A stretch of DNA of 33,924 nt, taken from contig CAJBLA010000143.1 of NCBI GenBank assembly GCA_903953815.1, forward strand, positions 1 through 33,924. The letters run 5' to 3'. The notes beneath the pieces were generated by a model. The model was not told where the DNA came from. It did not search any database and saw only the letters and a program-made list of their open reading frames with translations. Positions 6,380 to 31,724 of the stretch are shown piece by piece (positions within the stretch are counted from its first letter, which is position 1; the number at the start of each line of letters is the position of its first letter). Source of the DNA: an uncultured Bacteroidota bacterium (GTDB taxonomy: Bacteria > Bacteroidota > Bacteroidia > Chitinophagales > Chitinophagaceae). The translations under genes were made by a program, and so were the position numbers.

Positions 6380-8068
6380 TTATATTGGATGGTTAAATCC
6401 AATAGGGCTTCTACCCGTTTTACTTAATACAAATTCTTCCTTGCATAATTCCAAAATAGCATCTTCACTATTTGCTTCTTCATCCAACAAACTATTAATT
6501 AATATTTTCTTGTGAACATTCTGTATTTGACCACCTGTCAAGAAACAGGTATCATTAATTTTTTCAATAGTATCAACTGAAATATCCTGAAATACATTGG
6601 AAAGAATTTGTTTTCTTACATGGGCCTCCGGCTTCTTATATTCCACCTTGTATAAAAAGCGACGTTCAAATGCGGGATCTAAATGTGCAGCCAAATTGGT
6701 TGTTGCAATAAAAATGCCGTCTTCAAAATCTTCCATGTTTTGCAACATGATGTTTTGTAATGTATTGTAGGATTTGCTGGCGCTAGATTCTGCTTGCATT
6801 CTAGTACCTAAAATAGCATCAGCTTCATTAAACAATAAAATGGGTGCTAATTTCATTGATTTTCTACATTCCTTATAGCTAGTCCAAACGCTTTGCAACT
6901 GCTTTTCAGCCTCTCCCACAAATTTTGATTGCACACTAGAAATATCTAAAAAGAACACATCACGTCCAGATTGCGCAGCCCATTGCATTACCGTACTTGT
7001 TTTTCCACCACCAGCCACCCCATATAACAATATGTTGATACCGGTTTTTAAGCCCTTTTCTTTTAATTTGGTGACCAATTTTTTATAATTTTCTTCCTCC
7101 AAAGCACGAGAAATAGTGTCGATTTGCTTTTTCTCCGCTTCATTATAAAACAAAGTTTCTTTGTTAATTTTTTCGGCTTTATATACCGTACACAATTTGG
7201 GCTTTACTACTTTAGCAACTGTATCCTTGTATCCACCCAACATCACTTCCATCGCATGTTCACTTAATCTAACATAACTCATAAATGAAAATTCATCATC
7301 TGAATTAATCACCAAATCATTGGTAAATAAAGGACATTGGTTCTCTTTTATTTTTCTAGAATATCTAACTCTATCTTGTATCTCGCTATAAGTTTCCTTA
7401 ATCATTTTATCAATATTCACTTCATCCTGACCTTCAATATGCTCAATAGCAATATTTAATAAAATAGCTAAATCGTACTTTGTTACATCAGGATAGGATA
7501 ATAACCACTCCACCTCTGGAAAATCTGCATTTAATTGTAATAAGCCTAATAATTCATCACACAACTCTTCAGTTGTAATAATTGAATCAATACGCTTAAC
7601 GATCAATTCTCTAATTTGACTTAACAAAGCAAAGAAGTTACTAACCTTAGACACTTCCATCAAAGCTTTATCTCCTTTCATTAAAGCACCAATAGCACTT
7701 TCAACTACGGTAATTGTATTGTTATGTTCCTCCTTACGTCTCACTGAATAATCATGACGTTTTTTATACACTAATTTTTTTGCTGTCAATTCCTCAATGG
7801 CTATGTTTACCTCTGCCAACATGCTTAATTTTTTTCCAAAAATCTCTACCATTCTTTCTAAGTCAATATCTCGGTCTTTTAACTTTGCTTCTAAATACAC
7901 TGAAAATACTAATGCCTGAAAATGTGTGATACCATAAAAACCCATCAATGGCTGTGAGTCCATAACCAATTCATTCACCAATTGCTCAGTTAATTCTTGT
8001 CCTTTAATAGAAGTACTCAACTTTTGAACTGAAGTCAATAAATCTTTTGAAATGTGCATGTTTGTCAT
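6380..8068 (-). CDS. AAA family ATPase
   Basis: Walker A YGVAGGGKTSTV, Walker B-like ILLFNEADAIL, sensor-like IFIATTNLAAHLDPAFERRF. Confidence 0.92.
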   Translation of the reverse strand: MTNMHISKDLLTSVQKLSTSIKGQELTEQLVNELVMDSQPLMGFYGITHFQALVFSVYLEAKLKDRDIDLERMVEIFGKKLSMLAEVNIAIEELTAKKLVYKKRHDYSVRRKEEHNNTITVVESAIGALMKGDKALMEVSKVSNFFALLSQIRELIVKRIDSIITTEELCDELLGLLQLNADFPEVEWLLSYPDVTKYDLAILLNIAIEHIEGQDEVNIDKMIKETYSEIQDRVRYSRKIKENQCPLFTNDLVINSDDEFSFMSYVRLSEHAMEVMLGGYKDTVAKVVKPKLCTVYKAEKINKETLFYNEAEKKQIDTISRALEEENYKKLVTKLKEKGLKTGINILLYGVAGGGKTSTVMQWAAQSGRDVFFLDISSVQSKFVGEAEKQLQSVWTSYKECRKSMKLAPILLFNEADAILGTRMQAESSASKSYNTLQNIMLQNMEDFEDGIFIATTNLAAHLDPAFERRFLYKVEYKKPEAHVRKQILSNVFQDISVDTIEKINDTCFLTGGQIQNVHKKILINSLLDEEANSEDAILELCKEEFVLSKTGRSPIGFNHPI

Positions 8069-9286: not shown

Positions 9287-10276
9287 ATGCCAATTGTACA
9301 TGCTGCTAGGTTAAGGATGAGATATTTAGACCAAATTCTGCGCAACCACAATAGAAAATATACTGTCCTTGAAATTAAGGATATGATTAACCTAAAAACG
9401 GGCATAGGTATTTCAAAAGAAACCGTCTATCAGGACTTACAATACTTGAAGCGTGAATTTGATGCAAAAATTATTAAAAACAGCTATAATCAATACTATT
9501 ACGAGGATGCAGAATTTTCAATTGAAAAAGCGCCATTAAGCGATGATGATAAAATATTGTTAGATGTTGCTACTAGTATTTTTAAGCAATTTAAATCATC
9601 TCCTATTTTTGAAAAGTTTGAAACTGTTATTAATAAAATACTTACCGGTAGTGCAATCACTAAAATAGAACGAAATACGATGGACTGTATTCAACCCGAG
9701 CAAACCCAAAGTGTGGTAGGTGTTGAATATATTGAACCTATTTTAAATGCAATTTTAGAGCGTAATTCCATAGAGATAGAATACCAAAAAGAAGGACAAA
9801 AGCCCGAAACCAAAATAATTTCACCCTATGTATTAAAGCAAGTTGATCATCATTGGTATATGATTGGATTTGATAATCTTAAAACTAGTTTAACCAAGAA
9901 CTATTCCTTGGATAAAATATTGTCAGTAAAGGTTTCTAAACAACCTTACTATGTGGATGAAAATTTTGATGCCAGCCAGTTTTTTAAATATTCATTTGGG
10001 ATTTATCATAACTATAATAACAAGCCTCAAAAAATTAAACTTGAATTTAAGGACCCTTATATTAATACAATTATCAACTACCCTTTAAGCCCTTATCAAA
10101 CCCATACCCTTAGTAAGGATGGTAAAAAGCTTACAGTAAACCTTGAATTGTATGATTCCTGGGAGATAGTTTCGGAAATACTTAAATATGGTGCTAGTGT
10201 TAGAGTGCTATCGCCAAAAAGTTTAGCTTTAAAGATAAAGGGGATAGCGGAGGAGATTGCGATGGGGTATAAATAA
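9287..10276 (+). CDS. WYL-domain HTH transcriptional regulator
   Basis: N-terminal HTH-like region (YTVLEIKDMINLKTGIGISKETVYQDLQYLKREFDA), C-terminal WYL-type NSIEIEYQKEGQ...ISPYVLKQVDHHWYMIGFD and VRVLSPKSLALKIKGIAEE. Confidence 0.88.
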   Translation: MPIVHAARLRMRYLDQILRNHNRKYTVLEIKDMINLKTGIGISKETVYQDLQYLKREFDAKIIKNSYNQYYYEDAEFSIEKAPLSDDDKILLDVATSIFKQFKSSPIFEKFETVINKILTGSAITKIERNTMDCIQPEQTQSVVGVEYIEPILNAILERNSIEIEYQKEGQKPETKIISPYVLKQVDHHWYMIGFDNLKTSLTKNYSLDKILSVKVSKQPYYVDENFDASQFFKYSFGIYHNYNNKPQKIKLEFKDPYINTIINYPLSPYQTHTLSKDGKKLTVNLELYDSWEIVSEILKYGASVRVLSPKSLALKIKGIAEEIAMGYK

Positions 10277-10296: not shown

Positions 10297-10932
10297 ATGC
10301 AAGCAAGTACATTAATAAAAAAACTAAAAACTACCACCCTTCCTGAAACACTTACAATTAGGATTCACAGAGCCATTTCTTGGCTAAAAAGTGCAGAAAA
10401 ACAGGAAGAAAATTTAGATTTGAAATTCATCTCTCTATGGGTGTCATTTAATGCTTGCTATGCAGTTGACCTTAATGGGATTAGCTCTAAGCCAGAAAAA
10501 GCAAAATTGAGGGATTTTACAAGTAGTCTTGTTCAATTTGATCGTACCCGTTTATACAATTTATTTTGGGAGAAGTATAGCGGGCCTGTTAAAGTGTTAA
10601 TTGAGAATAAATTCGTTTTTGAAAAATTTTGGGAATATAATCGAGGTGAAGCCAATGACTATCTGCCTGCATTTAATAAATCTATCGCAAGTGCAACAAA
10701 CTGCCTATCCAAACAAAACATTGAGGGATTAATTGAAATTGTTTTGGAAAGGCTTTATACCCTTCGTAACCAATTAATTCATGGCGGAGCTACTTACAAT
10801 TCTAAGTTAAATAGGTCTCAATTAAGAGATGCCTGCAATATTATGCAATTGTTAGTTCCAATCATAATTGATATTATGCTCGATAACGGAGAGCATGATT
10901 GGGGGGAGATAGCTTATCCAGTGGTTTTATGA
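10297..10932 (+). CDS. HEPN (Apea-like) domain protein
   Basis: LKFISLWVSFNACYAV and C-terminal LYTLRNQLIHGGATY (RX4H). Confidence 0.75.
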   Translation: MQASTLIKKLKTTTLPETLTIRIHRAISWLKSAEKQEENLDLKFISLWVSFNACYAVDLNGISSKPEKAKLRDFTSSLVQFDRTRLYNLFWEKYSGPVKVLIENKFVFEKFWEYNRGEANDYLPAFNKSIASATNCLSKQNIEGLIEIVLERLYTLRNQLIHGGATYNSKLNRSQLRDACNIMQLLVPIIIDIMLDNGEHDWGEIAYPVVL

Positions 10933-13077
10933 TAAAATTAAATACTTTGTCATTACTGGATTAATCTTTGATGGATTCCAAACTAAAATTTCTGTATTCA
11001 ACTCGATTCTTGTTTCGCTTTCCCAAACTAATATTTTAATTTCTTTTTTATCATAATGATCATGTGACCATGCTCTCCCACTATAAACTGCAGGATTAGT
11101 CCAAAAATTGGAAATTGGTTTAAAATGCCATGGCATTATTTTAAATATATTTTTTGTACGAATGAAAAAATCGTTGAATAATGGATTAAGCTCATTTGCA
11201 ATGACATCTTCCGTTCTAATTATTTTATTATGATGAGAAGGTTTGTTTATTATATCGCTAATTCTATTAATTAAATTATAAAAATCTTTCCAATCAAACT
11301 CTGCTTTCCAATGAGAACCAAGGGCATAAATTATTTTATTTGCAGGGCCAACTGTAATATTTTCGATTTCTCTATCCCAATTGTTTCTTGACTGAAAACG
11401 AAAATCATTAATTTTAAGCAATACTAAATCATATAATTCATTCTTACTGTCTGGTAAATTAGAAGTAATTATTTTAATCAAATCTTTGAAATAACTCTCT
11501 AAACTAATCCTTAAACTATTCCATGTTTCAATTTTTGGATTTGATAAAACATAATTTCCGTCAACTTTTTCAAAAAAACTAACTAATGAAGTATCATATT
11601 CGATATGATCAGGTTTTACCCAACCTAAAGATTCAAGAAAATTGCTGTAATCGTTATTCAAATCGTGGTGAAATCCTAGTTCTTCAGAGATTTGTTCTAA
11701 CTCATCAGATCTGAAAAAGTCTAACATCATTTCTGCTAGCTTTCTTTTATCTCCATATTTGGAATTATCTTGTAAAAATAAATAATGTAAATAATCTGTA
11801 AATGAATCCCCGTTTAAAAATTCATTTGATTCAATGTCTTCAATTTCTATATTTGTATTGAAATGTTTATTAAGATACTTTGCATATGACTTCAAAAAAG
11901 GTGGATTACTAATCGATAACGATATTTTCCATCCAATCATTCTAGCATGATCCCAAACACAAATTTTTGACTCATTCCTGAATTCTTTCTCTAACTCAAT
12001 TAAGAAAATAGGTGAATATTCAATCACATTAACAATAAAATCATCAACTACTTTCCTATGTGATGGATTTTGTGTAAGATAAAGACTTTGCCAGTTTTTC
12101 TTATGCTCTTTAAAATCCGATTTGGCTCTTTTATATTCTTTATTTAAATCATAAATATTTTTGTCAATTTGAATGAGTTGTTCAATTAACATGCTCCTAA
12201 ACTGTTGATTCGCTTCCATTATCCATTTGTCAAAATCTGTAAGCAACGATTTGATTTCAGATTTAGGAATAAATCTAAAGGAATTAAAAACTTGAAGTAA
12301 ATTTTTTTCGATCTTATTATTGAAATCATTATATCTATTTAACTCAATACACTCTCTATATTTGAGAATTACTTCTTTTGCTAAATCTTTTTTATTATAT
12401 ATTATACAATATGACTCGTAAAATTTAAATAAATTTGAAAATTCGTTATTTATATCATGAGCAATTCTTAAAATGCTTTGAATTACTTCTAAATTAAATG
12501 GGGCCTCAATTAAAGTACTAATGTATTTATAACAGGTTTCGTAAATTTCAATTTTCCCTTTAGTTGGTTCAATTGGAATAGAATTCCTAAGCTTATTGTA
12601 ATTTAAATATGAAGGATAAATAACATTTGATGCTTCAATAATTGAAGTAAATTTTCCATTTAATAAAACATTGTTTAACTTATCTAGAATATTGAAAATA
12701 TTATCTACGTCAACGATTAAGCCCCAACCAGGTTGCGGGAATATACTACTCAATATAAGTAATGATTTACCTTTTTTATTAATATAACCATCTAATAATT
12801 TACTTATTTCATTTGAATCCGATGCTGATACCAACTTTGATTTAGTATTATATTTTTTATCCCCATTCGGATCTTCATTCTTTACAAAATAATTTCCTAA
12901 TAAGCGATATGGCTGGGCATTACTTATATCATTAAAAATTCTATAAATAGAATCAAGCTCATCCCAATTCCAATCTTGCCCTATTGGAATAACCCAAAAC
13001 AAAGAAGGCATTACTTTTTCGGAAGAAATTAGCTCTTGAATCTCTTTAGCTGAATAAGCACTTAATTGATAACCCAT
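10927..13077 (-). CDS. Large hypothetical protein (716 aa), no recognised domain
   Basis: Long ORF, 19 nt from the upstream gene; stop region overlaps the convergent HEPN gene by 6 bp. Confidence 0.85.
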   Translation of the reverse strand: MGYQLSAYSAKEIQELISSEKVMPSLFWVIPIGQDWNWDELDSIYRIFNDISNAQPYRLLGNYFVKNEDPNGDKKYNTKSKLVSASDSNEISKLLDGYINKKGKSLLILSSIFPQPGWGLIVDVDNIFNILDKLNNVLLNGKFTSIIEASNVIYPSYLNYNKLRNSIPIEPTKGKIEIYETCYKYISTLIEAPFNLEVIQSILRIAHDINNEFSNLFKFYESYCIIYNKKDLAKEVILKYRECIELNRYNDFNNKIEKNLLQVFNSFRFIPKSEIKSLLTDFDKWIMEANQQFRSMLIEQLIQIDKNIYDLNKEYKRAKSDFKEHKKNWQSLYLTQNPSHRKVVDDFIVNVIEYSPIFLIELEKEFRNESKICVWDHARMIGWKISLSISNPPFLKSYAKYLNKHFNTNIEIEDIESNEFLNGDSFTDYLHYLFLQDNSKYGDKRKLAEMMLDFFRSDELEQISEELGFHHDLNNDYSNFLESLGWVKPDHIEYDTSLVSFFEKVDGNYVLSNPKIETWNSLRISLESYFKDLIKIITSNLPDSKNELYDLVLLKINDFRFQSRNNWDREIENITVGPANKIIYALGSHWKAEFDWKDFYNLINRISDIINKPSHHNKIIRTEDVIANELNPLFNDFFIRTKNIFKIMPWHFKPISNFWTNPAVYSGRAWSHDHYDKKEIKILVWESETRIELNTEILVWNPSKINPVMTKYLILS

Positions 13078-13096
13078 AATCGATTAATTTAAAAAG

Positions 13097-13483
13097 TTAC
13101 AAACCAAATTTATCGAAATTTTCATCATTAAACCCTAAATCTCTTTGTACATTAATCGCGAAAGCTCGATTGTTATTGGGTTCAAGTTTTGTATTATTAT
13201 TAATTAAATAGCGATTCTCTCTGCCAACTTCCATAATTAATTGATGGTATTTGATTTTTGCATTTTCTAACTGCTTGATTGTCAATTTTCTAGTTGATTC
13301 TAATCTTCCTGTTACTAAAATAATTATAAAACCTAATTGATTCCATTTATTAAAATGTTCAATAACACCTGGCAAAAGTTCAAATTTATTTTCATCTAAC
13401 TCATTAAATTTTTCTTGTTTAAAAATTGTACCGTCAATGTCACAAAATATTGTTCTAGTGTTTTGATTTAATCCCATAGTCAT
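13097..13483 (-). CDS. HAD-superfamily hydrolase
   Basis: TIFCDIDGTIFK (DxDGT), IIILVTGRLESTRKLTIKQL. Confidence 0.85.
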   Translation of the reverse strand: MTMGLNQNTRTIFCDIDGTIFKQEKFNELDENKFELLPGVIEHFNKWNQLGFIIILVTGRLESTRKLTIKQLENAKIKYHQLIMEVGRENRYLINNNTKLEPNNNRAFAINVQRDLGFNDENFDKFGL

Positions 13484-13493
13484 TAATTTTTGT

Positions 13494-14411
13494 TCATAAT
13501 TTTTTTAATTCACTATCACTCGCATAAGGCACTTTGGCACTTGTTACCACTTTAGAGGCTTTATCCAAATGCACATCCTGGTCATCACAGAAAAAGTCAA
13601 CCCCGGCAGCTTCTAGTATTTTATCCTTTGATAGCCCTCCTAAAAAGTGGGTTTCGTGTATGTAAACACCCCAGGATCGTAATGTTTTAACTACCCTTTG
13701 TATTGCATCTCCTGACCTAGCAGTAATGATTGCCAATTTTAGGGGAGATAGCTCTACAGGTCCAGGTATAAATTGTTGGATTTGAGATAGCTTATGTAGT
13801 AATTTTGCAAAAGGACCCGCTGGCAGTGGTACGTCCTCATTGTCTTTTTCATGTTGTAAAAATGAAGCTAATCCTTCTGTCTTATACCTATATTCCGAGG
13901 AAGTAAATAATACCTCATCGGCGTCAAATCCAAACTTTACAATATTGGGATTGGTGATTACTTTATCAGGGGCATTTAAAATAAGAGCAGCTGCTGCTAG
14001 TTTTGAGTCAATTACTGCTTGTACATCTGTTTCATCTCTTGATAAAAACAAGTCAACGCCATAACCGGGTAAATATGTGCTAATTGGATTACCTCCTGTG
14101 AATGCCATTCTAGTGATATCTAATCCATGTTTATTTATTGAATTCATGACACGCATGCCCGTTTCAGGACTGTTTGTTGACATGACTACAATTTCAACTA
14201 TTTGCTTACTTGCAATTTTGTTTAATGCCAATAGCTTTTCGATTAAATAAAAGGCTGCACCTGGTGCTAATACTATATGCTCATTCTCCTCCTGGTATTT
14301 TCTAAATGCTACTATCCCTTCCTTGGTGAATATTTCATTTTCATGTTCTAATGAAAATAAACTTCTGGAGGAAACGCCTATTACTAATATTTCAGATAAA
14401 TCAACTGGCAT
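13494..14411 (-). CDS. 5'-nucleotidase (cytosolic 5'-nucleotidase-like, PF06189 type)
   Basis: FGFDADEVLFTSSEYRYKTEGL, LAIITARSGDAIQRVVKTLRSWGVYIHETHFLGGLSKDKILEAAGVDFFCDDQDVHL. Confidence 0.85.
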   Translation of the reverse strand: MPVDLSEILVIGVSSRSLFSLEHENEIFTKEGIVAFRKYQEENEHIVLAPGAAFYLIEKLLALNKIASKQIVEIVVMSTNSPETGMRVMNSINKHGLDITRMAFTGGNPISTYLPGYGVDLFLSRDETDVQAVIDSKLAAAALILNAPDKVITNPNIVKFGFDADEVLFTSSEYRYKTEGLASFLQHEKDNEDVPLPAGPFAKLLHKLSQIQQFIPGPVELSPLKLAIITARSGDAIQRVVKTLRSWGVYIHETHFLGGLSKDKILEAAGVDFFCDDQDVHLDKASKVVTSAKVPYASDSELKKL

Positions 14412-14413
14412 TG

Positions 14414-16444
14414 TTATTCTTGGTCGTTTAAAAGCATCATTCCTTCAACCAAAAAGCACATGGCCATGGTGTCTAACTCACAATAACGAAGTAGTGCTTC
14501 CTTTAATCTTAATCTTGCCTCTTCCGGTATGTGGGTGTATTGTAAATATGCATATGCACTTAATGCTGCACCGCCATCGGCAATGCCATCCATATCGTCA
14601 AAGTATTCATCCAATTCATCTCGGTCGTAGCCTTCAAAAATTGTAGGTAATGTTTTATAGGGGTCATTATTATAAGCTTGATTAATCCATTGATGATCGT
14701 CAAAGTTCAAGCTTTTAATAGCTAATTGTTTACCATAGATACCCAATGTTCCATATTTAGTTTTTAAATAAGGTACATCGTTGATTATTGAAGGTAGTAC
14801 AAACTTAAGTCCTACCTTGCCTTTTGAAAAAGGGGAATAATATAAGCGTTGAACTACATCATATAAATCAACCATATTTCTAGCGCCACTAACATAATTT
14901 TTACCATCTTCTTTATGTCTAGTTATTAAATCAATAAAGTCCAATAATTCAGATTTTTCAGGGTCTGCTACTTCTAACTCACCTGATACTATTTGACCAT
15001 GAATCATTCTTAAATAAGTATTTTCATGATTGTGGTATCTGAAAATTGTACCATTGTTTTTACTTAAAGATTGCTTTAGAGTTCTAATGAATTCTAAATT
15101 TGGAAAAACACCCTTTTCAAAATTGATGTACTCGCCAACATGTTCAATACGTCCATCCTTATGCATTAAATGATGCGACCATTGAAAAGCCACCCCACTG
15201 TATGGTGTCTTATTAATATAAAAAGGCAATGCACTGGTGGAAGTTTCAAAATCAATGTGATTTAAAGGCCATACCCAAGTGGCAGCCTCTGCATCAAAGT
15301 TATCTTTGTCAAAGTAATAATTAGTGTCCTTTGCTTTTTCCTTTTCCACTTGCTTACATCGTCTAGCATACTGATCTAAGCCAATTTTGTCTTTTTTTGT
15401 TGGTTCAGTTCCTAAGTCCGTATTTTCAAGGCGTTCCATTAGATAAATACCTTCATTCAAAGCGTTATCCATTCTTCCCTGCCAAACATCAATAGTCCAA
15501 GGGGATTGTAATAAATTATCTGCGTACTGACTTATATGTTTCCAACACTCTAATCTTCCATCTTTTAAACCATCTCCTTTTCCTGTCTTCACCCAAAATG
15601 AACATGATTTACAACTCATTGTAAGTGGAGAAAATTTTCGCTCGTCGTTTACATATATTTCTTCACAGTAGTTAACAAATTCCTCAAAAGTATACTCCTC
15701 GTTTAAAGTAGTTGGTACTTTATATTTATTCCATATTTTTTCAACTGTATCATCTGTATTCACAACAGCTAAGATAGATGCTCCTAATTGCGCCTTTGTG
15801 ACATTTGAGATATCAACAGATACCCTTCCGTCATCATCTTTAACAATTTGAAATATTTGATTCAACCCGTTAACTGTTGCTTTTTTTGCCTTATCCACCA
15901 ATAACAAATGTGAATTAACCCTATAGTCAGGGAAAGCTTTTGATACTACATATTTTTGAAATGCAATATCATATAAATAGGGCGCCCATTTGGAATTGAT
16001 GCCCTCCGTTGCTTTACCTAAATATGATATAAACGAAAGTTCGTTTTCAACATCGCTATTCCAACTTTTAGCTTTTACTTCATAAATGTCAATTACTTTA
16101 CCAACTGCATGTTTTACAATAATATCAGCTCTAATAAATAATTGATTGTATCTAAAAGCCCCTTCAGCAATTACTACCTTACCAGCCCTTGCTAGCTTTT
16201 CATTGGTAATACGAATTGATTCATCATAATCTAAGGTTTCAACAATAATATCATCAGCAATTGGGTTATCACAAAATTCAAATAATGCCAATGCGCCAGT
16301 TTGATGGCCACCTTCAGCTAATGCTTGTAAAAATTTATCATCAATTTTTTGATCAGCATATTCATTCTTTTTCCCCGTGTAATACAACTTAGTTACACAT
16401 TCTAACCCTGATTTGAACTTTGATTTTGTAAGATATCTTGCCAT
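14414..16444 (-). CDS. Cas4-like PD-(D/E)XK plus DEDD-exonuclease-like fusion (DUF2779 type)
   Basis: Start MARYLTKSKFKSGLECVTKLYYTGK at 16444 preferred over 16495; DIYEVKAKS nuclease core; MSCKSCSF...LECWK cysteines; NHIDFETSTSALPF and LRYCELDTMAM RNase H-like motifs. Confidence 0.82.
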   Translation of the reverse strand: MARYLTKSKFKSGLECVTKLYYTGKKNEYADQKIDDKFLQALAEGGHQTGALALFEFCDNPIADDIIVETLDYDESIRITNEKLARAGKVVIAEGAFRYNQLFIRADIIVKHAVGKVIDIYEVKAKSWNSDVENELSFISYLGKATEGINSKWAPYLYDIAFQKYVVSKAFPDYRVNSHLLLVDKAKKATVNGLNQIFQIVKDDDGRVSVDISNVTKAQLGASILAVVNTDDTVEKIWNKYKVPTTLNEEYTFEEFVNYCEEIYVNDERKFSPLTMSCKSCSFWVKTGKGDGLKDGRLECWKHISQYADNLLQSPWTIDVWQGRMDNALNEGIYLMERLENTDLGTEPTKKDKIGLDQYARRCKQVEKEKAKDTNYYFDKDNFDAEAATWVWPLNHIDFETSTSALPFYINKTPYSGVAFQWSHHLMHKDGRIEHVGEYINFEKGVFPNLEFIRTLKQSLSKNNGTIFRYHNHENTYLRMIHGQIVSGELEVADPEKSELLDFIDLITRHKEDGKNYVSGARNMVDLYDVVQRLYYSPFSKGKVGLKFVLPSIINDVPYLKTKYGTLGIYGKQLAIKSLNFDDHQWINQAYNNDPYKTLPTIFEGYDRDELDEYFDDMDGIADGGAALSAYAYLQYTHIPEEARLRLKEALLRYCELDTMAMCFLVEGMMLLNDQE

Positions 16445-16454
16445 GTTGATTAAT

Positions 16455-18932
16455 TTAAATATTAATAATATTACCCCTAGTAAATTGACTTGCATGTGAA
16501 TTATGACAAGTAAAAATTAGCACTTGTTTATTTTCCGCATAATCTTCAAAACAACTTACCGCATTTTGTTGTCTTCCTTCATCAAAATCAACCATTGGGT
16601 CATCGAACACTAAAAATCCGTCATTATTTTCTAATAAGTAATCTGCCATACTTAATCTTACAGCCAGACCCATTATACCAGAAGTGCCTTGAGATAATAG
16701 TTGAAATGGTAATTCTTTATTTTCTGCTACATTTACAACCATGTTTGGTGCCAATTTTTGTTCACTGTGAAATACATATTTACCACCACTTAGGGTATTC
16801 AAATATGTATTTAATTTATTGTGATAGTTTATATAAGGCGCATTTTGGGCATTTAGTAAAATATTTTTCAACTTATCTAAGGCCGATTTTAGGGAAATAG
16901 CTTCTTGGATTAAACTTTCTTTTTGTCTTGTTTTATCATTAATCTCTTGCTCTTTTTCCTCCGTGGTATAATTTATCGGGTTGCCTTCTAATATTTGCTT
17001 CTGTGTAAGTTTATCAGTTAATGAAACACTATTAGTATTATACCTTTCTTTTCTTGTTTCGAAAGTTGTGTTTAGAGTATCAAAATTTATTCCATCTGGG
17101 ATGGCTGCTAAACCATCAATCTGTGCTTGTTTTGCACTAATTTCATTAATCTTAGTAGCTATTGCTTGTACAATATCAATGACTCCTTGATATTGTTTTT
17201 TTAGATTTTCTAACTCTAGTTTGTGCTTATTAACTGCTATTTTTGATTGATTCAATTGCGTTGTAATTGAATTTTTCAAGTCAGTTAATTCTTCAACACC
17301 TCTAGTTAAGGGCAAGTTATTGATACTATCAACCTCAGCTTTTAAGGCCTCTAAGCTTCTGCCATTTAGTACTGCTTGCAATTCGGTATTTCTACTGCTC
17401 TTCACTTGCATTGCTGTATTGTAATTATTATTTAATGCTCTTAGCGCATCCATAGAATCAACCTTATATGAAATAAATATTTCTTTTAATTTCAATTCAA
17501 AATTCTTAATATCATTTTCTAATTGTAATATTTTTTCAACACTTGGTTTGATTTTAATTTTTACTGAATTAGTTGATAGTTTAACAGTTCCACTGCAGTC
17601 AATATCAATTGGGCTATTAGGTAATAATTGAATATTTTCATCTGGTAAATTTTCTTTAGTTACAACAAGATTATTTGTTTGTAACGCTTCAACCTGAATA
17701 ATAAATTTTTGTGCATTATTTAACGCATCTAAATTGGATTTCTTAATGTTTAAGTCATTTTGAATAGTTTCAACATCTGTCAAATTTGTATTAGTAATTT
17801 GTGGGGTATTTGATAATGCCAAATTAGCTGCAATAAATTGTGTATTCAAATCACTTGCGCGATTAAATTCATTGATTAAATTAATGGCACCTGCACGACT
17901 TTTTGAATTTTTTAATTCCGAATCTATACTTTGTAATTGCAGCGTATAATCATTAATTTGTTGTTCCAGGGCTGGTAACTGATTTTCACAATTTACCCAT
18001 GTATTTTGCTTATTCATTAATGATGCCTGCTGATCCACTAATAATTGTTTTTCAGCCAATAATCCTGAAGTTCTTTTGAAGCTCTCAATTTGCGGTTCTG
18101 TATCACTTATATAAAGTAAGTCTTCATTTACACTTATCCTTAAACTTCTAATGCTATTGACTAATTCATCTAGTTTATTGTCATAAGAAATTACAGCATC
18201 TAATTCTTTTTGATGATTATGAATTTCATAGGCTAATATTAATATTTTTCCTCTTGATTGAGTTCTTGGATAATCGTAACTACCTAGTCCATCGCCACCT
18301 ATAACTGGCGCATTATTATCAAAGTCCCAATTTTGAGAAATAGAATTTCGGTTGAATTCAAGTTTAGCAATAATATCTTGTGGCTGTATATTTGCAGTAT
18401 TCATTATTGCATTTATAATAATACTGTCTACATTTGCCTTAATTTCATTCGCATCTGAGTCTTTTGGATTATTTAACAACTCCAAAGTTTTTGCAATTTT
18501 TGATTGATTTACGAATAAAACATCTTTGAGAGATGCTTTATTAACTTTTATAAGTGTATCAAGCAATGCCTGCACATTAGCTTCATTTTCAATAGGTGCA
18601 TCATTCCCTTTTATAAGTTTAGAAGAATGGTTTGTTACTTTCCATGTTTTATATAATTTATAAACAACAGCATCAGACTCAAATGTTAATTCAATAGATA
18701 TTGAATCGCCTTTTGAATTATTTGTATTGATGGGAAAACAATCTCCCATCAATTTATTTAAATTATTTTCAGTAAGATCGGTTTTAACTAATAATGCTGA
18801 CTGTATCGCCTTAATCAAGGTTGACTTTCCACCTTCATTAGGTCCTTTAATTACATTCAAACCTTCATTAAAAATATAAGATTTATTAATCACACCAGCA
18901 AAGGCATTTAATTTAATATTGATCAATTTCAT
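16455..18932 (-). CDS. YhaN/SbcC/Rad50-like SMC-type ATPase without zinc hook
   Basis: Walker A VIKGPNEGGKSTLIKA, long coiled coil, signature LSQGTSGIMGLAVRLSMADYL, Walker B GFLVFDDPMVDFDEGRQ, no CXXC in the coiled coil. Confidence 0.87.
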   Translation of the reverse strand: MKLINIKLNAFAGVINKSYIFNEGLNVIKGPNEGGKSTLIKAIQSALLVKTDLTENNLNKLMGDCFPINTNNSKGDSISIELTFESDAVVYKLYKTWKVTNHSSKLIKGNDAPIENEANVQALLDTLIKVNKASLKDVLFVNQSKIAKTLELLNNPKDSDANEIKANVDSIIINAIMNTANIQPQDIIAKLEFNRNSISQNWDFDNNAPVIGGDGLGSYDYPRTQSRGKILILAYEIHNHQKELDAVISYDNKLDELVNSIRSLRISVNEDLLYISDTEPQIESFKRTSGLLAEKQLLVDQQASLMNKQNTWVNCENQLPALEQQINDYTLQLQSIDSELKNSKSRAGAINLINEFNRASDLNTQFIAANLALSNTPQITNTNLTDVETIQNDLNIKKSNLDALNNAQKFIIQVEALQTNNLVVTKENLPDENIQLLPNSPIDIDCSGTVKLSTNSVKIKIKPSVEKILQLENDIKNFELKLKEIFISYKVDSMDALRALNNNYNTAMQVKSSRNTELQAVLNGRSLEALKAEVDSINNLPLTRGVEELTDLKNSITTQLNQSKIAVNKHKLELENLKKQYQGVIDIVQAIATKINEISAKQAQIDGLAAIPDGINFDTLNTTFETRKERYNTNSVSLTDKLTQKQILEGNPINYTTEEKEQEINDKTRQKESLIQEAISLKSALDKLKNILLNAQNAPYINYHNKLNTYLNTLSGGKYVFHSEQKLAPNMVVNVAENKELPFQLLSQGTSGIMGLAVRLSMADYLLENNDGFLVFDDPMVDFDEGRQQNAVSCFEDYAENKQVLIFTCHNSHASQFTRGNIINI

Positions 18933-18938
18933 GTTCTT

Positions 18939-20060
18939 CTATGATTTATTTAATGTTTGTAAAGTTTCGAAAACTTTTTGCACTGCCAAAGTATCTCCAT
19001 CATTTAATAATTCAGTTAGTAGGACATTTGGGATAGATGCATTTGGATATGTATCATTTATCAATGTGTGATCAATTAATCTTTGTATATCCTTGACTTC
19101 CTCATAGTATAAAAAATTATTTCTAAAATCTCCTAATAATGTGGTCAAATTATCGGAATCGGCTTGACTTAAGCGACCCTTAATGTTTAAGCTTAAAGCA
19201 GTGTGTTTTTTATCTAAAGAATTTACAGTATTTGTTAGTTCTGTTATATCATTATTTGAGTTGATGTCTTTTTCTATTGATACGTACTCAAACAAACTAG
19301 GCACAAATCTTCTTGCATTTACATTCTTATCTTTATCAACTTCAATAATCCATGCATTTCCTTTACCATTTGATTTCCAAGAATCAGGCATATGAGTACC
19401 AGACATAAATAGGTTTGGATTCTCGGTAATATGTTCATAGGTAGGATAGGTGACATGAATATGCCCTAGTAGCCAAAAGTCGATATCAGTAGCTTTTAAT
19501 TCATCTCTCGTCATATTGAAATAGTTGTTCTTTTCGTCCCTACCTAAACCATAAACATTACCATGAGCTATTCCTATATTAATTTCATTTTTATTAATCA
19601 CTTCATTCTTTATCCAACCAATTGCGTTTTCTGAAGAATGTTTTGAACGACATGGTGCTGGATAAAAATTAACCTTTAAATCATTAGCTTCTAACACATG
19701 TTTTATAGAATTTGTTAATACAACGATATTATTATAGTTTCTACTATTATCTTTGAATTTCGACCACAGCGTATTAGCTTCATCTTCAAAGTAATCATGA
19801 TTACCCGGGGTAATAATTACCTCACCAGTAAAGTCTTTCAAAATATCGATTACTTTTTTTATGTTTGCGATTGATACTACAGTTTTGTCAAACAAATCAC
19901 CAGCAACTACTAAAAAATGACAACTATTCTCGTTGCCTGCTAAAACAATTCTTTTTATAGCCTCTAATCTTTCATTCAAACAGGTATCCTTTGCATTTTG
20001 CAAATTATTGTAACTTATGCCAATATGATTATCGGCGGTATGTATGATTTTTATACTCAT
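18939..20060 (-). CDS. Mre11/SbcD/YhaO-like metallophosphoesterase
   Basis: IIHTADNHIGI, VVAGDLFD, ITPGNHDYF, GIAHGNVYG, LLGHIHVTYP. Confidence 0.9.
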   Translation of the reverse strand: MSIKIIHTADNHIGISYNNLQNAKDTCLNERLEAIKRIVLAGNENSCHFLVVAGDLFDKTVVSIANIKKVIDILKDFTGEVIITPGNHDYFEDEANTLWSKFKDNSRNYNNIVVLTNSIKHVLEANDLKVNFYPAPCRSKHSSENAIGWIKNEVINKNEINIGIAHGNVYGLGRDEKNNYFNMTRDELKATDIDFWLLGHIHVTYPTYEHITENPNLFMSGTHMPDSWKSNGKGNAWIIEVDKDKNVNARRFVPSLFEYVSIEKDINSNNDITELTNTVNSLDKKHTALSLNIKGRLSQADSDNLTTLLGDFRNNFLYYEEVKDIQRLIDHTLINDTYPNASIPNVLLTELLNDGDTLAVQKVFETLQTLNKS

Positions 20061-28098: not shown

Positions 28099-29493
28099 CT
28101 ACTTAACAATAATATCTTTAACTGCTCTAGCCATACATTTTGGAATTTTATTTGGCGCTATGTCTTGTTGATTAAAACTAAATTGAATGGGTTCAATAAC
28201 ATTAAAATCGTCCCACTCGCGATTGCCTTCCAAAACATCTGAAATATTATCATCTGTCATATAACTTGTTTTTAAACTTGTCCCCCAATAACTAGTATTA
28301 AAAAATCCTCCAATAAAATCCTTGTTTTGATATAATGTATTCAATTCATCTTTGGTTGGTAATCTCCAACCTTTACCTAATGCATTACAAGCTTTATTGG
28401 CATCATCCCAATTCATTTCTTCAGGAAAATCATATTGTGCAACTTCTAAAATATCCATTTTGAATGGCGTGCCTATAATATTATTAGGTGCCTTAACGGC
28501 ACGAACATATTTCTGAAATCTCTTACCGTAATAGGTGGTCCTATTCGGATTTTTTTTGAAATGATTAAACGCTGACAAGCACTTATCATACTCGGTAGAA
28601 CTCCAATAGTTCCAATCACCTAAACAGCAGGTCTTATCTTTATTAAAATATAAATTTTTCAATTCTTCTTCAGTTGGTAACCTCCAACCATTAGCGAGTG
28701 AAGCACATGCTGATTCAGCGCTTTGCCAACTCATTTTTTCAGGAAAATCATATTGTGCAACTTCTAAATTGTCAATTTTAATTGGTGTTCCAATAATATC
28801 ATTAGGTGATGATATAATAGATGGTGCTTCTTTTGGTTCAAGATCCCCCCTAACGGCAAGAACTTTTTTAGTATGGAGTCTACTGCAATGATTATGTTCA
28901 CAATGCCTCATTGACATGGCAAATGCGCCGGTATCGGATTGTGTTGAGGAACTCCAATAACTCCCCTCATTCAGAGAATCGCCAAACTGGTCTTTATATT
29001 TATATAAAATACTTAATTCAAATCTTGTTGGTAATCTCCAACCATTAGCGAGTGAAGCACATGCTGCTTCAGCATCAGTCCAATTCACTTCTTGAGGAAA
29101 ATCATATTGTGCAACTTCTAAATTATCAATTTTGAATGGCGTACCAATGATATCAATAGAACTTTTCATTTTAACCAATCGCACATAAAATGAATTCTCT
29201 GAACTAAAATTTTGACCTTGAAATCCGGCATGCTCATCTTTCCCAAAAGATTGAATGCATTGTCCATTAGACTCAAATGTAGAGGACCAGTAAACCGGAT
29301 ATTTTATTATGCCATCTTGATCTATAATCGTTTCGGCAAATCCGCCAATTTTAGCCCTTTTGATAAAAATATAATTCAACTCATCTTTTGTAGGTAATCT
29401 CCAACCTTCCTTAATTTTTTGAAGATTAACAATTTCGTTATAAGGTAGATAACCTTCATCATGTTGGTCAATAAGTAAATATATAAAGCTCAT
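28099..29493 (-). CDS. DUF1566/FISUMP-type protein with four tandem GWRLPT units
   Basis: Four GWRLPTxxEL motifs, three IIGTPxKIDNLEVAQYDFP-type blocks, repeated YWSST. Confidence 0.88.
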   Translation of the reverse strand: MSFIYLLIDQHDEGYLPYNEIVNLQKIKEGWRLPTKDELNYIFIKRAKIGGFAETIIDQDGIIKYPVYWSSTFESNGQCIQSFGKDEHAGFQGQNFSSENSFYVRLVKMKSSIDIIGTPFKIDNLEVAQYDFPQEVNWTDAEAACASLANGWRLPTRFELSILYKYKDQFGDSLNEGSYWSSSTQSDTGAFAMSMRHCEHNHCSRLHTKKVLAVRGDLEPKEAPSIISSPNDIIGTPIKIDNLEVAQYDFPEKMSWQSAESACASLANGWRLPTEEELKNLYFNKDKTCCLGDWNYWSSTEYDKCLSAFNHFKKNPNRTTYYGKRFQKYVRAVKAPNNIIGTPFKMDILEVAQYDFPEEMNWDDANKACNALGKGWRLPTKDELNTLYQNKDFIGGFFNTSYWGTSLKTSYMTDDNISDVLEGNREWDDFNVIEPIQFSFNQQDIAPNKIPKCMARAVKDIIVK

Positions 29494-31412: not shown

Positions 31413-31724
31413 ATGAGAACTTTTTTAGTTATAATAATACTTCTTTTAATCGGTGTATTTCCCGTAAATGCGCAAAAGGTTTATAAAACTTCCTTCAAAT
31501 CTGAAGCGGATAAAATCATATATGTTACCGAATTTAAATCCGAAGCAGATATCATAGTTTTTGATACTAAATTTAAATCTGAGGCTAAACCTTATTCTGG
31601 AATTTGGTTCTGGACAACATTCAAATCAGAGGCTGACTGGAAGGTATATTTCACTAAATTTAAATCTGAAGCAAACCTAAAAGTTTACTTCACCAAATTC
31701 AAAAGTGAAGCTGGGATGAAATAA
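31413..31724 (+). CDS. Secreted FKSEA-repeat protein (DUF6150-like)
   Basis: Signal peptide MRTFLVIIILLLIGVFPVNAQ then six FKSEA-containing repeats. Confidence 0.85.
   Translation: MRTFLVIIILLLIGVFPVNAQKVYKTSFKSEADKIIYVTEFKSEADIIVFDTKFKSEAKPYSGIWFWTTFKSEADWKVYFTKFKSEANLKVYFTKFKSEAGMK

What the first reader, a model, noticed from the sequence alone, without database searches (positions are those of the whole stretch)
10927..20060. Tight six-gene operon combining Mre11/Rad50-like, Cas4/DEDD fusion, 5'-nucleotidase, HAD and a 716-aa unknown protein
Seen: six minus-strand genes with gaps of 6, 10, 2, 10 and 19 nt. Knowledge: Mre11/Rad50-type pairs, PD-(D/E)XK nucleases and DEDD exonucleases process DNA ends; PF06189 5'-nucleotidases and HAD phosphatases act on nucleotides. 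Inference: the operon may couple DNA degradation to nucleotide dephosphorylation, as a defense, abortive or nucleotide-salvage module, with the 716-aa protein as a sensor or effector. A WYL regulator and HEPN gene face it.
Basis: partly seen in the sequence, partly recalled or inferred. Interest (0 to 1): 0.75.

Follow-up and report, generated by a model that had tools for sequence, protein, structure and literature searches.

The report
Nuclease-plus-nucleotidase defence-type operon
Six bacterial genes run together on a probably mobile piece of DNA: a Mre11/Rad50 DNA-end cutter, a two-headed nuclease, two phosphatases and an orphan protein; the exact set is unique, but its core (Mre11/Rad50, the nuclease and a nucleotide-destroying enzyme) recurs in unrelated bacteria, wrapped around known anti-phage systems.

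Summary
The six minus-strand genes at 10927-20060 are real. Identities hold: Mre11-like/Rad50-like pair, Cas4-like/DEDD DUF2779 protein, PF06189 5'-nucleotidase (PADLOC candidate PDC-S08), small HAD protein, and a 716-aa orphan with no relative found. Tight spacing is not special here: 10 of 21 other same-strand gaps are also <=20 nt. No other locus examined carries all six; each gene usually has other partners, mostly in defence contexts (BREX, restriction-modification, WYL). But the core recurs: Mre11/Rad50-type pairs with DUF2779 in an Oligoflexia genome, two IMG/VR contigs (same order, 15-nt gap) and Arcobacteraceae, where SbcD-SbcC-[slot]-DUF2779, often followed by dGTPase, is conserved (SbcCD near 12 of 40 sampled DUF2779 loci) and the slot holds Gabija, Hachiman, Ppl or Qat genes. 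Control: 0 of 59 generic SbcD loci have DUF2779. DUF2779-5'-nucleotidase adjacency recurs in an Arcobacter plasmid. Best reading: a compact mobile defence operon pairing DNA-end processing with nucleotide hydrolysis. No function was tested; accretion of separate defence genes is not excluded, and the HAD and 716-aa genes have no comparative support. Interest 0.6.

The parts
18939..20060 (-). Mre11/SbcD-like nuclease, 373 aa, first gene of the run
   Evidence: PF00149 1.9e-16; catalytic D10, D55, N87-H88, H166, H200, H202 invariant with three relatives; PDB Mre11/SbcD matches
16455..18932 (-). Rad50-like ATPase, 825 aa, short (YhaN-size) type; Walker A GPNEGGKS, signature LLSQGTSG, Walker B FLVFDDPMVDFD; no CxxC zinc hook seen in the translation
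   Evidence: SMC_N/AAA_27; PDB Rad50 2e-9; Mre11 partner adjacent in every locus where the neighbouring gene is on the contig
14414..16444 (-). DUF2779 protein: N-terminal Cas4-like PD-(D/E)XK nuclease with four conserved Cys, C-terminal RNase-H-like DEDD exonuclease (start at 16495 also possible)
   Evidence: PF11074 1.5e-18; C33, C295, C298, C317, D124-E139-K141, D415-E417, D543, D675 (numbering of the 693-aa ORF) conserved in 16 sequences; family assignment in PMC3985635
13494..14411 (-). 5'-nucleotidase (PF06189, cN-I type, HAD fold), 305 aa
   Evidence: PF06189 7.4e-103; PADLOC PDC-S08 6.7e-108; D163xD165, T230, D276-D277 invariant in 16 sequences
13097..13483 (-). Small HAD phosphatase-like protein, 128 aa, nearest to polynucleotide-kinase 3'-phosphatase and GmhB-like domains; DxDGT present, C-terminal acidic motif not recognisable
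   Evidence: PF25109 4.4e-6, PF03767 6.7e-8; phrog_415 polynucleotide kinase 3.3e-10
10927..13077 (-). 716-aa orphan protein, last gene of the run; no family, no relative found
   Evidence: no significant hit in Pfam, PADLOC, NCBIfam; no relative; two weak hits are RsmH-like and haloperoxidase-like ORFs, taken as chance; model pLDDT 34.8, unusable
9287..10276 (+). wHTH-WYL-WCX regulator (BrxR/CapW-like), convergent neighbour
   Evidence: PF13280 2.1e-11, PF25583 2e-7; WYL genes near DUF2779 in 6 of 28 Bacteroidota-sample loci, IMG/VR L203 and plasmids
10297..10932 (+). HEPN-like protein with RX4H motif (RNQLIH), 20 nt after WYL
   Evidence: PF18735 5.7e-4, below its cut-off; motif read

Best explanation
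A mobile defence-type operon built on a recurrent nuclease core. Proposed order of events: (1) the Mre11-Rad50 pair loads on free or blocked ends of invading DNA and nicks it, using ATP; (2) the DUF2779 protein, with a Cas4-like PD-(D/E)XK head and a DEDD 3'-5' exonuclease head, resects the opened strands to short pieces and mononucleotides; (3) the 5'-nucleotidase strips the phosphate from released or free (d)NMPs so that they cannot be re-used for phage replication, playing the part that dGTPase plays in the Arcobacteraceae version; (4) the small HAD may clean 3'-phosphate ends; (5) the 716-aa orphan is a candidate effector, comparable to the variable cargo that elsewhere sits in these loci. 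Shown here: gene content, intact catalytic motifs of genes 1-4, recurrence of the core and its defence context. Inferred: enzymatic activities, order of events, anti-phage function, and any role of the HAD and 716-aa proteins.
For: Catalytic motifs intact: Mre11, Rad50 Walker A/B and signature, DUF2779, nucleotidase. Core recurs: Oligoflexia L122 DUF2779-MvaI/BcnI endonuclease-Mre11-Rad50; IMG/VR L202/L204 SbcD-SbcC-DUF2779, same order, gaps 11 and 15 nt, followed by a restriction/McrBC-like block; Arcobacteraceae SbcD-SbcC-[cargo]-DUF2779-[cargo]-dGTPase. SbcCD-type genes within 10 kb of DUF2779, same strand and upstream, in 12 of 40 sampled Campylobacterota loci; about 0.8 expected by random placement, binomial 1e-11, relatedness ignored. 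Cargo in that slot is known defence: GajA 1e-187 with GajB 2.5e-241, HamB, Ppl, plus PADLOC dGTPase 9e-65 downstream, Qat, SIR2 with a DUF87/HerA protein. DUF2779 next to 5'-nucleotidase in Arcobacter p82 and Sphingobium; same strand within 6 kb in L271/L272. 5'-nucleotidase and DUF2779 each also sit at BREX genes.
Against: The full set occurs only here. In 28 DUF2779 loci of the window's phylum no Mre11/Rad50 or 5'-nucleotidase neighbour was found, and 20 more distant Campylobacterota DUF2779 loci have no SbcCD. The Mre11 family mostly travels with Rad50 alone. Campylobacterota loci are related, so the 12 of 40 are far fewer independent events. DUF2779 there is a ~490-aa form, about 26% identical to P0003. 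Tight spacing is ordinary in this window. HAD and 716-aa genes have no comparative support.
Confidence: 0.45

Rival explanations
1. Accretion: separate, self-sufficient defence genes (Mre11-Rad50 pair, DUF2779, nucleotidase PDC-S08, orphan) have piled up head to tail behind one promoter in a gene-dense, mobile island, with no joint mechanism.
For: Each gene is usually found without the others; nucleotidase alone beside BREX, type III and Eco57I-type restriction genes; Mre11-Rad50 with reverse transcriptase, AlbA/Schlafen or HerA; ordinary spacing; different defence systems swap in the Arcobacteraceae slot.
Against: Mre11/Rad50-type pairs of at least three subfamilies recur beside DUF2779, and 0 of 59 generic SbcD loci have DUF2779.
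Confidence: 0.33
2. Replicon maintenance: a plasmid- or phage-borne DNA recombination and nucleotide-recycling module (SbcCD / gp46-47-like) serving the element's own replication.
For: DnaB-like helicase, AAA, SPFH and VWA genes flank it; AAA relatives sit on plasmids of Segatella, Aliarcobacter, Chryseobacterium; VWA relatives in large phages; Arcobacteraceae SbcCD sits beside parA/parB/rep genes.
Against: No phage structural genes recognised; WYL, HEPN and PDC-S08 neighbours and swapped-in anti-phage systems point to defence; no replication initiator or relaxase recognised in the window; relatives also occur on large chromosome-size contigs.
Confidence: 0.17
3. Nucleotide salvage: DNA degraded by the nucleases is turned into nucleosides for growth.
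For: A nuclease plus 5'-nucleotidase pairing is what salvage would need.
Against: No nucleoside kinase or transport gene in the run; the alternative partner elsewhere is dGTPase, which wastes dNTPs; defence context throughout.
Confidence: 0.05

Closest known systems
SbcD-SbcC-[Gabija/Hachiman/Ppl/Qat]-DUF2779-dGTPase loci of Arcobacteraceae (recognised here; the genes are listed singly for an A. cryaerophilus plasmid in PMC6690266, in a table of possible virulence genes)
   Same: Mre11/Rad50-type pair first, DUF2779 downstream on the same strand, a nucleotide hydrolase after it, tight spacing in L264/L265, WYL regulators nearby in some
   Different: Different SbcCD subfamilies, ~490-aa DUF2779, dGTPase instead of 5'-nucleotidase, known anti-phage cargo between SbcC and DUF2779; the window has no cargo there and ends with HAD and an orphan
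dGTPase / dCTP-deaminase nucleotide-depletion defence (cited in PMC9090908)
   Same: Would starve phage of DNA precursors by removing phosphates from nucleotides
   Different: The window enzyme is a PF06189 5'-nucleotidase acting on monophosphates (family knowledge), not a dNTPase or deaminase, and is linked to nucleases
PADLOC candidate PDC-S08
   Same: P0004 matches it at 6.7e-108; the gene is repeatedly found in defence islands
   Different: PDC-S08 is a single-gene, unvalidated candidate; here it is joined to Mre11-Rad50 and DUF2779
Lamassu (LmuB SMC-like protein; PMC10586767)
   Same: SMC/Rad50-type ATPase in a defence setting; P0002 hits LmuB at 1.7e-15
   Different: A Mre11 nuclease partner is present; no LmuA effector or LmuC detected
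Bacterial SbcCD and B. subtilis YhaN/YhaO-type pairs
   Same: Same fold pair and operon order, nuclease before ATPase
   Different: A distinct, patchily distributed family: 7 of 297 phylum genomes at E<=1e-10 including the window's own, only 3 others clearly in the family

Membership tests
Mre11-Rad50 (SbcCD) complex | Metallophosphoesterase nuclease with Mre11 motifs, adjacent to a Rad50-type ABC ATPase | tested here: met
   pair conserved in all loci where both sides are on the contig
Mre11-Rad50 (SbcCD) complex | CxxC zinc hook in the Rad50 coiled coil | tested here: not met
   No CxxC in the P0002 translation; short YhaN-size subtype, so this limits the claim 'canonical Rad50', not 'Rad50-like'
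DUF2779 nuclease (RNase H-like exonuclease family F.17 with DUF83/PD-(D/E)XK domain, PMC3985635) | PF11074 domain with DEDD residues plus Cas4-like PD-(D/E)XK domain and Cys cluster | tested here: met
   PF11074 67.7 bits over cut-off 23.3; conserved D/E/K and four Cys
DUF2779 nuclease (RNase H-like exonuclease family F.17 with DUF83/PD-(D/E)XK domain, PMC3985635) | Three-dimensional Cas4-like and RNase-H-like folds | tested here: inconclusive
   Model pLDDT 66.8; only weak PDB matches, E>=0.02, among them HincII, Cas4-family ACE1, Cas4 4r5q, RNase H
PF06189 5'-nucleotidase / PDC-S08 | Family score over cut-off and HAD catalytic residues | tested here: met
   343.9 bits against 28.2; PDC-S08 358.4 bits; invariant residues
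PF06189 5'-nucleotidase / PDC-S08 | 5'-nucleotidase activity and anti-phage effect | not testable with these tools
   No experiment possible; PDC systems are unvalidated candidates (PMC10855318)
Lamassu | LmuA effector encoded with LmuB, usually with LmuC | tested here: not met
   No LmuA or LmuC hit in any gene of the run
BREX | PglX, PglZ, BrxC/BrxL core genes | tested here: not met
   None of the proteins scanned in and beside the run hits them; BREX genes occur only at relatives' loci
SbcCD-[slot]-DUF2779-nucleotide hydrolase frame (defined here) | Mre11/Rad50-type pair upstream of DUF2779 on the same strand, nucleotide hydrolase after it | tested here: met
   Window order Mre11-Rad50-DUF2779-5'-nucleotidase; parallels
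SbcCD-[slot]-DUF2779-nucleotide hydrolase frame (defined here) | Common descent of the frame rather than convergence | tested here: inconclusive
   Different SbcCD subfamilies and DUF2779 lengths; no tree was built
BrxR/CapW regulator family (PMC9122601) | wHTH-WYL-WCX layout near defence genes | tested here: inconclusive
   WYL and WCX domains found; the N-terminal HTH is my reading of the sequence; DNA binding and target promoter not testable

The most novel reading that the evidence does not exclude
SbcCD-type complex + DUF2779 + nucleotide hydrolase is an undescribed, widely distributed defence module (or a frame around swappable anti-phage systems) in which a DNA-end-processing machine feeds a two-headed nuclease and the released nucleotides are destroyed; the window is a compact form of it with a 5'-nucleotidase and a new 716-aa effector.
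Probability: 0.33. Interest if true: 0.8.

Novelty: new variant of a known kind. Interest (0 to 1): 0.6.

Why it matters
DUF2779 has no hit in PADLOC, and none of the six papers in the library that name it was seen to give it a defence role. Finding it repeatedly between SbcCD-type genes and a dGTPase or 5'-nucleotidase, with Gabija, Hachiman, Ppl or Qat genes swapped in beside it, gives a directly testable hypothesis: that destruction of invading DNA and destruction of its building blocks are coupled in one operon. It also gives a marker (DUF2779 near sbcC) for finding new defence systems in the slot, and makes the 716-aa orphan a concrete candidate.

Tried and rejected
Six-gene unit conserved elsewhere: rejected. 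Homologues of the 716-aa protein: searched in relatives, phylum sample, plasmids, phages, viral and genome contigs; none; two weak hits turned out to be RsmH-like and haloperoxidase-like ORFs. Structure of the 716-aa protein: pLDDT 34.8, so no fold search was made. Phage origin of the window: flank genes have distant phage relatives but no structural genes were recognised; the AAA gene is closer to plasmid genes. Circular contig: no exact end overlap. Lamassu membership: no LmuA/LmuC. Promoter and terminator scans: chance level for promoters, three minus-strand terminator-like sites all inside coding sequence. DUF2779 of L204 in E. coli genomes by DNA: none. Single-protein viral scans with P0001, P0006 and the AAA protein found nothing.
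Full report
WHAT IS THERE. The window is contig C143 (33,924 nt) of a 2.62-Mb, 312-contig assembly. Six minus-strand ORFs fill 10927-20060 with gaps of 6, 10, 2, 10 and 19 nt. Spacing by itself is weak evidence: 10 of the 21 other same-strand neighbours in this window are also <=20 nt apart. No terminator-like site lies between the genes and promoter-like sites are at shuffle level. The WYL and HEPN genes lie on the other strand and converge on the 3' end of the run.

WHAT THE GENES ARE. P0001 is a Mre11/SbcD-type nuclease with its metal ligands. P0002 is a short Rad50-type ATPase with Walker A, signature and Walker B motifs and no CxxC hook. P0003 carries a Cas4-like PD-(D/E)XK domain with four conserved cysteines and a C-terminal DEDD exonuclease domain (DUF2779), with catalytic positions conserved among 16 sequences; a published survey puts DUF2779 among RNase-H-like 3'-5' exonucleases that also contain a DUF83/PD-(D/E)XK domain (PMC3985635). 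P0004 is a PF06189 5'-nucleotidase that matches PADLOC's unvalidated candidate PDC-S08. P0005 is a small HAD protein closest to polynucleotide-kinase phosphatase and GmhB-like domains; its C-terminal acidic motif is not recognisable, so activity is uncertain. P0006, 716 aa, has no relative in any collection searched and gave no usable model.

IS THE SET CONSERVED? No. DUF2779 relatives occur in 43 of 297 genomes of the phylum (the window's own included); among 28 neighbourhoods none had the Mre11, Rad50, nucleotidase, HAD or 716-aa gene, while 6 had a WYL gene and one a relative of the AAA gene that also flanks the window's run. Single partners include a reverse transcriptase, an AlbA/Schlafen protein and HerA. 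The nucleotidase occurs in 13 of 297 genomes (the window's own included), in part beside BrxL/PglZ, type III or Eco57I-type restriction genes, and on plasmids in part near SIR2, TM0106 RecB-like or RecD-like genes.

BUT THE CORE RECURS. In an Oligoflexia genome DUF2779 (922 bits to the local family model), an MvaI/BcnI-type endonuclease, Mre11 and Rad50 lie in one run. Two IMG/VR contigs, similar to each other, carry SbcD-SbcC-DUF2779 in the window's order, 11 and 15 nt apart in L204, inside a block with an AAA protein and McrBC-like genes (my reading of the sequences). In Arcobacteraceae plasmids and other Campylobacterota genomes the order SbcD-SbcC-[cargo]-DUF2779 recurs and is often followed by dGTPase; L264 and L265 are tight six-gene runs, SbcD-SbcC-~889 aa-~175 aa-DUF2779-dGTPase, the 889-aa gene of L264 matching Ppl. 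The cargo is Gabija in L262, a HamB (Hachiman) helicase in L268, an OLD-like protein in L266, Qat in pACRY43158, and SIR2 with a DUF87 protein in pAFAEC. Of 40 sampled Campylobacterota DUF2779 loci, 12 have SbcCD-type genes within 10 kb, upstream on the same strand, 6 have dGTPase and 2 the nucleotidase; random placement predicts about 0.8, though the loci are related and 20 more distant ones had none. Conversely 0 of 59 generic SbcD loci carried DUF2779. DUF2779 and the 5'-nucleotidase are adjacent in Arcobacter plasmid p82, which also encodes another SbcCD pair elsewhere on the plasmid, and are neighbours on opposite strands in Sphingobium.

HOW IT MAY WORK. The pattern suits a defence operon in which Mre11-Rad50 opens DNA ends, DUF2779 degrades the strands, and a phosphohydrolase removes nucleotides: 5'-nucleotidase here, dGTPase in Arcobacteraceae. 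dGTPase is an accepted nucleotide-depletion defence (cited in PMC9090908). That the nucleotidase acts on (d)NMPs is family knowledge, not tested. The HAD protein as 3'-end cleaner and the 716-aa protein as effector are guesses. The WYL gene has the layout of BrxR-type regulators, about half of which sit near defence systems (PMC9122601), but its position offers no proof that it controls the run.

ALTERNATIVES. Independent defence genes gathered behind one promoter explain much of the data and are my main rival; the repeated pairing of Mre11/Rad50-type genes with DUF2779 is the reason I put it second. A replicon-maintenance role cannot be excluded, because DnaB-like, AAA, SPFH and VWA genes flank the run.

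VERDICT. Observation confirmed; interpretation partly supported; a new variant of a known kind, resting on comparative evidence only.

Noticed in passing
L262, L264, L265, L268, L248 (Campylobacterota): SbcD-SbcC and DUF2779(-dGTPase) bracket a slot that holds Gabija, Ppl, Hachiman or Qat genes: a possible defence-system insertion hotspot.
   Followed up: partly
L091 7681-12607: The window-type Mre11-Rad50 pair directly follows a reverse-transcriptase gene (RVT_1 1.1e-11), overlapping by 1 nt.
   Followed up: no
L097, L105, L201, L203: PF06189 5'-nucleotidase and DUF2779 each sit beside BREX genes (BrxL, PglZ), suggesting they can be accessory BREX genes.
   Followed up: partly
L115 (Zymomonas plasmid pZMOB01): Apparently broken 5'-nucleotidase beside SIR2, a non-canonical NTP pyrophosphatase and adenosine deaminase: a cluster of nucleotide-degrading genes.
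   Followed up: no
window 31413-31724 (+): Secreted-looking 103-aa ORF made of repeated FKSEA-containing units.
   Followed up: no
window 28099-29493 (-): 464-aa protein with several copies of a GWRLPT/YWSS repeat (DUF1566-like, my reading).
   Followed up: no
window 6380-8068 (-): AAA+ ATPase whose best plasmid relatives are on Segatella, Aliarcobacter and Chryseobacterium plasmids, in part near WYL, HAD or 5'-nucleotidase genes.
   Followed up: partly
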